DNA of 64,000 bases, from contig JALHMY010000002.1 in assembly GCA_022843805.1 (NCBI GenBank), positions 1 through 64,000 on the forward strand, read 5' to 3'. Positions 8,512-12,666 of the stretch are shown here, piece by piece (positions within the stretch are counted from its first letter, which is position 1; the number at the start of each line of letters is the position of its first letter). Source of the stretch: Fuerstiella sp. Lineage in GTDB: Bacteria; Planctomycetota; Planctomycetia; Planctomycetales; Planctomycetaceae. The notes below the pieces were generated by a model that was given only the letters and a program-made list of their open reading frames with translations, searched no databases and had not been told where the DNA came from. The position numbers were made by a program, and so were the translations under genes.

Positions 8512-10374
8512 ATGGGTGCCGTTTACGATGAATTTCAACGCGAACTGGCGGCGATGCGAAAACGCTGTGGCGATGATGCTCGACGAGAACTGATTCAGCT
8601 GTTTCTGCTGGCACTGGAACGTGAAGAACTTGTCTCCATCGGGTATCGCGAATCATTGATGAAGGAGCGGATCGCGGCAATGCCGGTCGCGAATGACGTG
8701 AAAGAATTACTGCGGCACGCTCTCGTCTGGATCTGGAAGGACGAGGAGATGCACACGATCTACATTCGTGGAGCGATCCTGAAGCTTGGCGGATGGAAAT
8801 TGCGGACTCAGGCGTTTCTGACACAGGCGGCCGGAGGCGTTGGCGGCTGGGCGGGGTCGGTGATGCAGCACAGTCGCTGGAGTCGAGCGCCGTTTTCACG
8901 GCTGATAGCAACGTTAGTGACCGCGATTGGCGGGCTCGCTGGAAAAGTCCCGCGAGATGTGAAACAGCATCTGCAGACAGGACCATTTCGCAATTTCTGC
9001 ACCTTTAATATCGATGCGGAGCTGACAGCCGCGGTCTGCTGGTATCGCATCACTGAGCTTGCCGAGTCGCAGCCCGATCTGGACATGCAGCTGGCCAGAG
9101 ATTTTAGACGTGTGGCCGAAGACGAAGATCGCCACGGTAAACTGTTTGAGATCCTTGCAGGGGCACTCACAGACCGAGACACGCTTGCCGAAGGTATAAC
9201 AGCAGATTCACTGACTGAACAGATCCGTGAAGTTGGCGAAGAGTTCCTGCCGCGCGAACATCGCTGGATTTCCAACAGCCAAAATCCCATTGGCAGTGGT
9301 CAGCATGTATTGGTTCTGAGTGCGAAGCACAGTGACCGGAAGCGAGAGTTATTTCGGCGAGTGTTGCTGGAAGGCGGACTGCGAGAAGCTATTCAAGCTC
9401 GTGCGTCCGCCGTCGGTCGCCCAGTTGAACAAATGAAGATCGCCATCAAGCCCACATTCATGCTTGGATACCATCGCGGGGACCTGTCCCCGATAACGGA
9501 CCCTGAGCTGGTTGATGATCTGGCTGCCTGTTTGCGGGAGTTTGGATGTGCTGACATCGTGCTGGTCGAAGGTCGAAATATTTACGATCGATTTTTCCGG
9601 AACCGCAGCGTTCATCAGGTTGCTGAATACTTTGGCATTAACTCAGACAACTATCGCGTCGTGGATACCGAGGAAGATCAGGTGCTGCACCAGTACTCTC
9701 GAGGGATGGCACAGTACACAATTGCCAGGGCATGGCGAGATGCCGACTTTCGGATTTCGTTTCCGAAACTGCGAAGTCATCCGATCGAAATGGCGTTATT
9801 GACTGTCGGGAATATTGAGTGGGTCGGCGGCCGATGCGACGAATATCTTTTTCTGGAACGTCAGGCGGACCGTGCGACGGCCGTGATGATGCTGCTGAAT
9901 GACTTTCCTCCACACTTCGGAATTGTGGATGCCTTCGAGAATGTGCCGGATGGTCTGGTCGGCGTGATGGGCTGCCAGAAACCCATTCATCCGATGCGAT
10001 TCTACGCTGGTCCGGACGCGCTGGCTGTGGATACGATTGCGCTGCGGCACATAGGAGTGCAGCAGTTTGAGTCTTCCAGTCTGTTGCGGAGCACAGCTCA
10101 ATGGTTTGGCGGCAGCCGGAATGCGATTGAAGTGAAGGGCGAAGACTCTCCGATTGAGAACTGGCGAGGGCCATTTCACAACGAGCTGAGATCATTACTC
10201 AGCATCATGGCATATCCAGTGTATGTGATGGGAAGTGGTCGAGGGTCATTGTTTGTTCCTGAGATGGATTCGCAGGCTTTCCCCCCGCTTCGTCGTGAAG
10301 GACTGCTGTTAAGGATGACTCGTCGAGCGGTTCGCTGGTTGCTGGGCCTGCACCGGCCGGTTTCCGGATCATGA
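8512..10374 (+). CDS. Ferritin-like diiron domain fused to DUF362
   Basis: A 620-residue protein with two parts. Residues 20-250 form a helical domain with a diiron ligand pattern: E37/E39, the pair E78-x-x-H81 (EEMH), E170 (NIDAE) and E205-x-x-H208 (EDRH), the spacing of a four-helix ferritin-like bundle. Residues 265-560 match DUF362: IAIKPTFMLGY, ITDPELVDDLAACLREFG, ISFPKLRSHP with VGNIEWVGGR, and AGPDALAVDTIALRHIG. There is no CxxC ferredoxin cluster of the kind attached to some DUF362 proteins. The start codon follows a long divergent gap. It heads a tight operon: the CrtI-like gene starts 7 bp later and the hydrolase overlaps that by 1 bp. This suggests an O2-dependent or redox step on a small, possibly lipid or isoprenoid, substrate. 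That role is inference; I know of no assigned function for this fusion. Confidence 0.8.
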   Translation: MGAVYDEFQRELAAMRKRCGDDARRELIQLFLLALEREELVSIGYRESLMKERIAAMPVANDVKELLRHALVWIWKDEEMHTIYIRGAILKLGGWKLRTQAFLTQAAGGVGGWAGSVMQHSRWSRAPFSRLIATLVTAIGGLAGKVPRDVKQHLQTGPFRNFCTFNIDAELTAAVCWYRITELAESQPDLDMQLARDFRRVAEDEDRHGKLFEILAGALTDRDTLAEGITADSLTEQIREVGEEFLPREHRWISNSQNPIGSGQHVLVLSAKHSDRKRELFRRVLLEGGLREAIQARASAVGRPVEQMKIAIKPTFMLGYHRGDLSPITDPELVDDLAACLREFGCADIVLVEGRNIYDRFFRNRSVHQVAEYFGINSDNYRVVDTEEDQVLHQYSRGMAQYTIARAWRDADFRISFPKLRSHPIEMALLTVGNIEWVGGRCDEYLFLERQADRATAVMMLLNDFPPHFGIVDAFENVPDGLVGVMGCQKPIHPMRFYAGPDALAVDTIALRHIGVQQFESSSLLRSTAQWFGGSRNAIEVKGEDSPIENWRGPFHNELRSLLSIMAYPVYVMGSGRGSLFVPEMDSQAFPPLRREGLLLRMTRRAVRWLLGLHRPVSGS

Positions 10375-10381
10375 GGCACAA

Positions 10382-11812
10382 ATGACTCGAAACGTCGTCG
10401 TTATTGGAGCTGGTATTGGTGGGCTGAGTTCCGCTGTTCGCCTTGCCCGGAAAGGCTGTCAGGTAACAGTTCTGGAAGCACGCTCTGTTGCCGGAGGACT
10501 TGCGGGGGGATTTCAACTGGAAGGATTTCGATTTGACACGGGTCCCTACGTGCTGCTCGACAGGCCTGGTATCGAATGGGCGTTTCGGCAGCTCGAGATT
10601 GACCCGGAAACTCAGCTTTCACTGCAGCGCATTCCGGAAGTCTATCAGGTTGACGACGGTTCCGGCCACAATGTCGCGGTCTATGATTCCTTCGAGCAGA
10701 CGGCGTCTGAGTTTGAACAGCAGTGGCCGGGAACTCGAGAAAAATACGGCCAGTTCATCGACCGTTCGGCAGCAGTGTATCGACGTCTTCAGCCCATGCA
10801 GTGGAAGTCGCAGCCGGGAGTCATCGACGTTTTTCGAAATGGCGCATGGCGGGATGTGCCGTTTCTGCTGAGTTCCCTGGGATCTGTGCTGAAGGCATCG
10901 AAGCTGCCGGAAGCGATTGTTCAGGCTCTGGGAATCTGGACTCACGTGGCGGGACAACTGGCCGGAGCCGCCCCTGCTCCGCTGGCGCTGGTGACATCGG
11001 TGATTCATCATGTCGGCGCATGTTATCTGCGCGGTGGCATCGGGATGATTTCCGATGTCTTGATGAACGCCGCCACTGACGCTGGTGCAGAGTTTCGATT
11101 CGGCACTCCCGTTCGCCGAATTTGCTGCCGCAATGGAACTGTCATCGGCGTTGAAACTGACAAAGAGATGCTTTTGGCCGATGCAGTCATTTCCAATGCC
11201 GGTTTGGCCACCTATGCCGGACTGCTGGACGAGGCGGGACGAGCTGCACTAAGTCATCGGACGCAACGCTACTTTCAGAATTTGCCACTGCAATCTCCTG
11301 GTGTGTGTGCGTATCTTGCCGTCAAGGGCAGACCCGCTCCGCCATATCTGAGATTTCGACTGCGCGGGGAAGAAGACGGCTGCCGATTGCTGGTTACGCC
11401 AGGAGTTGTGGATCCCTCACTTGAGAACGAAGGCTGGTATCCGGCGAGGCTCATCGCTCCGATGGCCCATGCGCGAGCGGAATCGGGCGGCGAAGCCGGT
11501 CAGCGGGCGTTCCTGCATCGTGTTGTGGAACAAGAGCACTGGTGGCGAGATTGTTTCGATGATGTACGCGTGCTGGAGACTCGAATCCCGAGTGAATGGG
11601 GAAACAGGTTTCATCTGCACAACAATAGTATGAATCCGGTGATGACTTCGAAATTCATGCTGACCGGGCGTGTCGCTCATCGCAGTCCCTGGATTCGTCG
11701 TTTGTATTTGACTGGCAGTGCGACGCATCCCGGGCAGTGGGTGAGTTTTTGTTCGGTCAGTGGAGTTCTGGCGGCTGATTGTTTGCTGGCCGATGCGAAG
11801 GCGAGACGGTAA
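10382..11812 (+). CDS. CrtI/phytoene desaturase-like FAD oxidoreductase
   Basis: A 476-residue flavoprotein. The N-terminus has the dinucleotide-binding motif VIGAGIGGLSSAVRLARKG and the family follow-up VLEARSVAGGLAGGF, then FRFDTGPYVLLD. Near the end, LTGSATHPGQWVSFCSVSG is the second FAD-binding motif of phytoene desaturases and carotenoid isomerases. Several residue blocks in between (LRGGIGMISDVLMNAATDAGAEF, ISNAGLATYAGLL) also fit. Family members desaturate, saturate or isomerise polyenes. No phytoene synthase or other carotenoid gene lies in the window, so the substrate is unknown. It starts 7 bp after the ferritin-like/DUF362 gene and its TAA overlaps the ATG of the next gene (TAATG), so the three proteins are very likely made together. 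Confidence 0.9.
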   Translation: MTRNVVVIGAGIGGLSSAVRLARKGCQVTVLEARSVAGGLAGGFQLEGFRFDTGPYVLLDRPGIEWAFRQLEIDPETQLSLQRIPEVYQVDDGSGHNVAVYDSFEQTASEFEQQWPGTREKYGQFIDRSAAVYRRLQPMQWKSQPGVIDVFRNGAWRDVPFLLSSLGSVLKASKLPEAIVQALGIWTHVAGQLAGAAPAPLALVTSVIHHVGACYLRGGIGMISDVLMNAATDAGAEFRFGTPVRRICCRNGTVIGVETDKEMLLADAVISNAGLATYAGLLDEAGRAALSHRTQRYFQNLPLQSPGVCAYLAVKGRPAPPYLRFRLRGEEDGCRLLVTPGVVDPSLENEGWYPARLIAPMAHARAESGGEAGQRAFLHRVVEQEHWWRDCFDDVRVLETRIPSEWGNRFHLHNNSMNPVMTSKFMLTGRVAHRSPWIRRLYLTGSATHPGQWVSFCSVSGVLAADCLLADAKARR

Positions 11813-12666
11813 TGAACCACGTTCCTCTGCTGGCAACCCAACGACTGCACCTGAGCAACGGAAAGCATTTGCGCATATTTCGCAGTGGCAACGGGCCTCC
11901 CATTGTTCTGCTGCATGGTTATCCGGAGAACCTTCAGATCTGGAGTCAGGTTGCTCCACTGCTGGCGGACCATTTTGAGGTCATTGCATTTGATTGGCCT
12001 GGAATGGGATACAGTGACGAGTGGCCGGGAGGTACGACTCCACAATTGCTTGCCCGAAGACTGCTGCTGATACTTGATGAACTCAGGGTGTCGCGACCCA
12101 CGGTGCTGGGTCTGGATATGGGCGGCCAGCCTGCACTGGCATTCGCCGCGATGTATTCAGATCGTATTCAGAGACTCATCGTTATGAATTCGCTTGTCTT
12201 TGGCGATGAACAAACGTCGTGGGAAATCCGATGGTTGCGAAAGTTCGGCTTCAATCGCTTTGTATTGCGAACGCTGCCGGGCCTCATCTTTCGTCGCGCG
12301 GAACGCACTTTTTTGTCACGCGGTGAGCGACTGGATGCTCGACTGCGCAGCGACTTTTGGACAGCATTCCAAAAGTCGGCGGTTCGCAGATTTATCAGCA
12401 AAATGTGCGCAGGATATCAGGGAACGCTGAGTCAGCTCCCGGAGATGTACAGAACAATTCGTTGTCCCACACTGGTTCTGTGGGCGGAACATGACAAGCA
12501 TTTTCCCCTGATTCAGGCAAGGCGACTTCACGAGGCGATCAGAGGATCGAGGTTGAGTATTATTCGAGAGGCAACTCATTGGATGCCTCTGACGCATGCC
12601 ATGGTGCTGACTGACACTGTCAGGCGATTCGACGTTCAAATTCCTGTCGATGAAGCCAGCAGTTAA
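11812..12666 (+). CDS. Alpha/beta hydrolase with Asp nucleophile (haloalkane dehalogenase/epoxide hydrolase type)
   Basis: A 284-residue cytoplasmic enzyme. The oxyanion motif HGYPENLQIW lies at residues 35-44. The nucleophile elbow is GLDMGG with Asp102 rather than Ser, which places it with haloalkane dehalogenases and epoxide hydrolases instead of esterases. The acid is probably Asp228 (WAEHDKHFP) and the base His256 (EATHWMPL). A cap domain spans about residues 135-210. The start at 11812 overlaps the stop of the CrtI-like gene by one base (TAATG), indicating translational coupling. In this operon an epoxide or similar oxygenated intermediate made by the diiron/FAD proteins is a plausible substrate, but that is inference. 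Confidence 0.88.
   Translation: MNHVPLLATQRLHLSNGKHLRIFRSGNGPPIVLLHGYPENLQIWSQVAPLLADHFEVIAFDWPGMGYSDEWPGGTTPQLLARRLLLILDELRVSRPTVLGLDMGGQPALAFAAMYSDRIQRLIVMNSLVFGDEQTSWEIRWLRKFGFNRFVLRTLPGLIFRRAERTFLSRGERLDARLRSDFWTAFQKSAVRRFISKMCAGYQGTLSQLPEMYRTIRCPTLVLWAEHDKHFPLIQARRLHEAIRGSRLSIIREATHWMPLTHAMVLTDTVRRFDVQIPVDEASS

What the first reader, a model, noticed from the sequence alone, without database searches (positions are those of the whole stretch)
8512..9300. Two E-x-x-H motifs with full diiron ligand spacing next to DUF362
E37/E39, E78-H81, E170 and E205-H208 are spaced as in ferritin-like oxidases. DUF362 proteins usually carry ferredoxin clusters or stand alone, so a catalytic diiron partner would redefine the family role.
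Basis: partly seen in the sequence, partly recalled or inferred. Interest (0 to 1): 0.55.

Follow-up and report, generated by a model that had tools for sequence, protein, structure and literature searches.

The report
Diiron-DUF362 fusion enzyme with conserved operon
One planctomycete gene joins a predicted two-iron, oxygen-activating four-helix domain to a LarA-like domain of unknown function (DUF362), and in most of its relatives it travels with the same two other enzyme genes, which points to an undescribed oxidative pathway that can be tested.

Summary
The diiron domain is not beside DUF362; it is residues 1-256 of the same 620-aa ORF (8512-10374). And E37 is really R37; the helix-A ligand is most likely E38. 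The ligand set E38, E78/H81, E170, E205/H208 is kept in all 20 relatives I could read (helix A/B ligands in 19; one is cut by a contig end), from Planctomycetota, Acidobacteria and one Chitinophagaceae MAG. Sequence matches to ferritin-like Pfam families are sub-threshold, but AlphaFold models resemble bacterioferritin and alternative oxidase (Z 12-13.7), one ligand set per helix. The DUF362 half resembles the lactate-racemase (LarA) fold (Z about 10) and has no invariant cysteine.

New: in 16 of 20 loci the gene lies next to a CrtI-like FAD oxidoreductase and an alpha/beta-hydrolase with an invariant Asp nucleophile (a seventeenth contig ends after CrtI). No other neighbour recurs across phyla. 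I read it as an O2-activating diiron oxygenase fused to a LarA-like domain, in a three-enzyme oxidative module for a lipophilic substrate. The diiron domain is well supported; reaction and substrate are inference. It does not redefine DUF362 as a whole: three stand-alone relatives lack the diiron domain.

The parts
8512..10374 (+). 620-aa fusion protein: N-terminal ferritin-like diiron domain plus C-terminal DUF362 (LarA-like) domain
   Evidence: single ORF; same fusion in all full-length relatives
8512..9279 (+). ferritin-like four-helix diiron domain, residues 1-256
   Evidence: model pLDDT 74.5, Z up to 12.6 to bacterioferritin and 12.5 to alternative oxidase
8623..8625 (+). E38, most likely helix-A iron ligand (E36 also invariant)
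   Evidence: invariant; aligned with the bacterioferritin/rubrerythrin consensus Glu, and Y45 with its Tyr at +7
8743..8754 (+). E78-x-x-H81, helix-B ligands
   Evidence: invariant; aligned with consensus ExxH
9019..9021 (+). E170, helix-C ligand
9124..9135 (+). E205-x-x-H208, helix-D ligands
9439..10044 (+). DUF362 (PF04015) core, LarA-superfamily fold
   Evidence: PF04015 E 2e-11; Z about 10 to malate and lactate racemases
10382..11812 (+). CrtI/phytoene-desaturase-like FAD oxidoreductase, 476 aa, 7 bp downstream
   Evidence: PF01593 2.6e-20; TIGR02734 164 bits (below its cut-off of 238); conserved neighbour
11812..12666 (+). alpha/beta-hydrolase, 284 aa, start overlaps the stop of the CrtI-like gene by one base; Asp nucleophile (DMG) and HGYP motif

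Best explanation
The protein is a two-domain enzyme. Its N-terminal ferritin-like bundle holds a carboxylate-bridged diiron centre (E38, E78, H81, E170, E205, H208) that activates O2. Its C-terminal DUF362 domain has the lactate-racemase-type fold and supplies a second site that binds substrate or a cofactor. It works with the CrtI-like FAD oxidoreductase and the Asp-nucleophile hydrolase on one lipophilic, probably unsaturated (isoprenoid- or polyene-like) substrate: the diiron site inserts oxygen, the hydrolase opens an epoxide or ester-type intermediate, and the FAD enzyme desaturates or isomerises. Shown by computation: fold resemblance, ligand invariance, fusion, and the conserved gene trio. 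Inferred: iron occupancy, O2 activation, the order of steps, the substrate class, and what the DUF362 domain does.
For: Ligands invariant in all 20 readable relatives from three phyla. Models: helices 23-43, 61-92, 159-185 and 192-218 each carry a ligand set; fold matches Z 12.6 bacterioferritin, 12.5 AOX, 13.7 bacterioferritin with the full-length model. Sub-threshold Pfam hits include three ferritin-like families (that label recalled for DUF455 and FA_desaturase_2): rubrerythrin 4 of 11 members (best 0.0015), DUF455 3 of 11, FA_desaturase_2 2 of 11 (best 0.00042), beside five unrelated families at 0.017 or weaker; rubrerythrin 0.0041 over residues 169-223 in L006. The DUF362 half matches LarA-superfamily structures, Z 10.6 to 9.2, the only family over residues 270-516 at Z 9 or more; Pfam puts DUF362 and DUF2088/LarA in one clan (PMC11770544, passages). 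Gene trio: CrtI-like partner at 17 of 20 loci, hydrolase at 16 of 20, no other neighbour recurring across phyla; in L018 the two partners are on the opposite strand but still adjacent. The hydrolase has an invariant Asp at the nucleophile elbow, 13 of 13 rows.
Against: No sequence profile reaches a curated ferritin-like cut-off. Foldseek E-values are not significant (best ferritin-like 0.13, though probability 1.00), and Z under about 13 can be a generic effect for helical bundles (note). hhalign probabilities are 0.1 to 5.9%. Full-length model pLDDT is 62.5 and residues 106-145 are mostly below 50. Three of 20 loci lack the partners nearby, and two of those three genomes have no CrtI-like match at E <= 1e-20, the third only a 28%-identical one, so the fusion protein can apparently act without them. 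No electron donor is conserved next to it.
Confidence: 0.5

Rival explanations
1. The N-terminal domain is a ferritin/rubrerythrin-like peroxidase, iron-storage or stress domain rather than an oxygenase, and DUF362 is its client or redox partner.
For: Best fold matches are bacterioferritin and Dps; best sequence traces are to rubrerythrin.
Against: Fixed fusion and linkage to a CrtI-like FAD enzyme and a hydrolase indicate metabolism; a stretch of about 65 residues between helices B and C is unlike a cage-forming ferritin (helix ends; the comparison is inference).
Confidence: 0.2
2. AOX/PTOX-like role: the diiron domain is a membrane-peripheral oxidase that reoxidises an electron carrier reduced by the CrtI-like desaturase.
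For: AOX gives the longest structural alignments, 188 residues over model residues 1-252, Z 12.5; the partner is desaturase-like. The PTOX/phytoene desaturase link is recalled.
Against: No PF01786 match in any of 11 members; CrtI-type enzymes commonly need no separate oxidase (recalled); the DUF362 half is unexplained.
Confidence: 0.12
3. The four-helix domain is structural or membrane-anchoring, and the conserved acids and histidines bind another metal or none.
For: Iron binding cannot be shown by these tools; the middle of the domain is modelled with low confidence.
Against: Invariance of one complete diiron ligand set among 23 Glu and 6 His.
Confidence: 0.08
4. The two ExxH motifs are a chance pattern.
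For: 9% of shuffles give two or more ExxH motifs.
Against: Cross-phylum invariance in all readable relatives.
Confidence: 0.02

Closest known systems
Bacterioferritin / rubrerythrin (ferritin-like superfamily)
   Same: Four-helix bundle with E, ExxH, E, ExxH ligands and a Tyr seven residues after the helix-A Glu; Z up to 13.7
   Different: No curated profile match; long stretch between helices B and C; fused to DUF362; metabolic gene context
Alternative oxidase (AOX)
   Same: Structural alignment over the whole domain, Z 12.5, 188 residues; a similar helix-B ExMH motif (recalled for AOX)
   Different: No PF01786 match; fusion with DUF362
DUF362 (PF04015) and the lactate racemase superfamily (LarA, DUF2088)
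   Same: PF04015 match above cut-off; LarA-like fold Z about 10; K419 and H423 kept in stand-alone relatives too
   Different: No invariant Cys, so no family-wide ferredoxin cluster; the position before H423 where I place the cofactor-tethering Lys of LarA (recalled) is R, K or E here
CrtI family (TIGR02734) with epoxide-hydrolase/dehalogenase-type alpha/beta-hydrolases
   Same: The two linked genes belong to these broad superfamilies
   Different: Below the TIGR02734 cut-off (164 vs 238 bits); no paper found that joins these with a diiron-DUF362 protein

Membership tests
Ferritin-like diiron-carboxylate proteins | One Glu and one ExxH in each half of a four-helix bundle | tested here: met
   Helix placement; invariance; ligand register against bacterioferritin/rubrerythrin consensus
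Ferritin-like diiron-carboxylate proteins | Sequence-profile match above a curated cut-off | tested here: not met
   Rubrerythrin 13 bits vs cut-off 22.8; best members E 0.00042-0.0041, rubrerythrin 17.9 bits in L006
Ferritin-like diiron-carboxylate proteins | Fold similarity | tested here: met
   Z 12.6 and 13.7; caveat that helical bundles below about 13 can be generic, and Foldseek E-values were not significant
Ferritin-like diiron-carboxylate proteins | Bound diiron site | not testable with these tools
   Needs metal analysis or a structure
Alternative oxidase | PF01786 match | tested here: not met
   No AOX hit in 11 members at E <= 10
Alternative oxidase | Quinol oxidase activity | not testable with these tools
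   Needs an assay
DUF362 (PF04015) | PF04015 match above gathering score | tested here: met
   44.8 bits vs 24
LarA superfamily enzyme | LarA-type fold | tested here: met
   Z 10.6 to 9.2 over residues 270-516; the model has low confidence in much of this half
LarA superfamily enzyme | Cofactor-tethering Lys and catalytic His pair | tested here: inconclusive
   H423 invariant; position 406 is R, K or E; the correspondence is a motif reading with recalled LarA residues, and hhalign gave no reliable alignment
CrtI-type phytoene desaturase (neighbour gene) | TIGR02734 score above cut-off | tested here: not met
   164.3 vs 238.1 bits

The most novel reading that the evidence does not exclude
A new class of oxygenase in which a diiron bundle and a LarA-fold domain, possibly with its own metal or nucleotide cofactor, act in tandem on one lipophilic substrate, forming with a CrtI-like flavoenzyme and an Asp-hydrolase an undescribed lipid or isoprenoid pathway shared by three phyla; this would give a first defined chemistry for a DUF362 domain.
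Probability: 0.25. Interest if true: 0.75.

Novelty: new variant of a known kind. Interest (0 to 1): 0.5.

Why it matters
DUF362 is widespread and has no assigned function; the papers whose passages I read name it only as unknown, iron-sulfur-associated, or an outgroup of LarA. A conserved fusion to a predicted diiron domain plus two recognisable partner enzymes gives a concrete three-gene module that can be expressed and assayed, and so a route to the chemistry of at least one DUF362 branch.

Tried and rejected
Chance motif: rejected by conservation. Ferredoxin-type DUF362: no invariant Cys in the DUF362 half. Anti-phage system: no PADLOC hit for the fusion or the hydrolase; the CrtI-like protein hits only a desaturase-named model over 44 residues. 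Plasmid carriage: no match in 72,556 plasmid records. Stand-alone copies of the N-terminal domain: none in 392 planctomycete genomes apart from one weak E 8e-4 match with four stops inside, none in 148 genomes of the Chitinophagaceae phylum, and one weak E 0.006 match in 397 same-class genomes, in whose fetched region the trio queries found nothing (L058). PDB sequence searches with the N-terminal sequence or profile gave only insignificant or unrelated chains. hhalign of the DUF362 half against LarA-like proteins of the same genome gave no usable alignment; two templates (L041, L044) were wrong reading frames, corrected. My Python listing of template columns was off-register; only the consensus letters printed by hhalign were used. 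AOX searched in 59 relatives: nothing, but no control rang either, so this is uninformative. PMC10892978 was listed for DUF362 only because the term matched DUF3623. Literature: searches found no paper that joins DUF362 with a ferritin-like or diiron domain; of the 276 papers counted only the best 15 were listed, and the library covers open-licence PMC papers only.

Full report
What is there. The ORF at 8512-10374 (+) encodes 620 aa. PF04015 (DUF362) matches residues 310-511 at E 2e-11. The feature is therefore one fusion protein and not two neighbours.

Is it more than chance. Two ExxH motifs occur by chance in 9% of shuffles of this domain, so the motifs alone prove little. The test is conservation. 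I found relatives with genome contigs (10 loci), with 392 planctomycete genomes (7 matches including the window itself and one weak match with stops), with 297 genomes of the Acidobacteria phylum (5 matches, 3 of them full-length, one of these already held), with 395 genomes of the Chitinophagaceae phylum (2 matches, 1 full-length and already held), and with 397 same-class genomes (7 matches, of which three lie on contigs of the same length as loci already held, one is the window and one is weak). After removing duplicates there are 20 fused proteins including the window. One (L008/L034) is cut by a contig end and lacks helices A and B. E36, E38, E78 and H81 are kept in 19 of 19 that cover them; E170, E205 and H208 in 20 of 20. 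In the 17-row alignment 5 of 23 Glu and 2 of 6 His are invariant, and they are the proposed ligands plus E36; background invariance is 37 of 257.

Fold. The N-terminal model (pLDDT 74.5, low in residues 106-145) has long helices 23-43, 61-92, 159-185 and 192-218, each carrying one ligand set. VIA-align gives bacterioferritin Z 12.6 and AOX Z 12.5 over 188 residues, and the 50 listed rows are dominated by ferritin-superfamily proteins. With the full-length model bacterioferritin reaches 13.7, and unrelated helical proteins appear only from Z 9.3 down. Plain Foldseek E-values are not significant, and designed helical bundles rank among the top rows there. By sequence, traces of rubrerythrin (4 of 11 members), DUF455 (3 of 11) and FA_desaturase_2 (2 of 11) appear below cut-off, along with five unrelated families. 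A profile alignment with 12 rubrerythrin/bacterioferritin-like proteins from related genomes places E38, Y45, E78, H81, E170, E205 and H208 on the consensus E, y, E, H, E, e, h, but only as the second alignment, at 0.6% probability. I take E38 as the helix-A ligand for that reason and because of the Tyr at +7, a bacterioferritin feature that I recall. E36 is not excluded.

The other half. The DUF362 region of the full model matches malate and lactate racemases of the LarA superfamily at Z 10.6 to 9.2, in line with the shared Pfam clan reported in PMC11770544 (passages read). Twenty positions, among them K313, K419, H423, D480, G481, G484 and D507, are shared with three stand-alone DUF362 proteins. 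No Cys in this half is invariant, so a ferredoxin cluster is not a feature of this branch. Whether it binds the nickel-pincer cofactor cannot be said; the tethering Lys of LarA, as I recall it and place it by motif, is not conserved here.

Context. A CrtI-like FAD oxidoreductase follows after 7 bp and an alpha/beta-hydrolase overlaps the end of that gene by one base (coordinates; hydrolase start set at the ATG at 11812, as aligned). The CrtI-like gene is found at 17 of 20 loci and the hydrolase at 16 of 20, counting contig-edge fragments; no other neighbour recurs across phyla. At three loci (L032, L036, L057) neither partner is near; two of those genomes (G044, G403) have no CrtI-like match at E <= 1e-20, and the third only a 28%-identical one. 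Three same-genus genomes searched have no close copy of the CrtI-like partner, and the two of them listed lack the fusion gene, so the module is accessory. The hydrolase keeps an Asp at the nucleophile elbow (DMG) and an HGYP motif in 13 of 13 rows; its acid position varies. Asp nucleophiles are typical of epoxide hydrolases and dehalogenases (recalled); the best PDB sequence match is an enol-lactonase, with epoxide hydrolases and fluoroacetate dehalogenase further down.

How it probably works. The diiron domain would activate O2 and oxidise a lipophilic substrate; the hydrolase would open the oxygenated intermediate; the CrtI-like enzyme would desaturate or isomerise. The DUF362 half would bind the substrate or a second cofactor. 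The fold and ligand set are well supported; the chemistry, substrate class and order are inference. A ferritin-like storage or peroxidase role and an AOX-like electron-sink role remain open.

Verdict. The claim that it redefines DUF362 is too wide: it applies to one branch. No held paper was found that describes the fusion (listings, plus passages of three papers).

Noticed in passing
window 8998-9000 and 9037-9039 (residues C163 and C176): Two invariant cysteines flank E170 on helix C (at -7 and +6), possibly facing the metal site; one is cut from no row that covers it.
   Followed up: no
L037:7336-8928: A 530-aa stand-alone DUF362 relative with a hydrophobic N-terminal part, next to a hydrophobic 291-aa protein, in a genome of the Acidobacteria phylum.
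   Followed up: partly
L038:6978-9854: A 958-aa protein with a DUF362 C-terminal part behind a long unidentified N-terminal region.
   Followed up: no
L018:3757-7836: In the Chitinophagaceae MAG the trio is kept but divergent: the fusion on +, CrtI-like and hydrolase genes on -.
   Followed up: yes
L044 (G000:C16:11408-11878) and L040-L042: The window's genome has one further PF04015 match, in a 429-aa frame with DUF2088-like motifs, and three Lar_N (PF09861) matches.
   Followed up: partly
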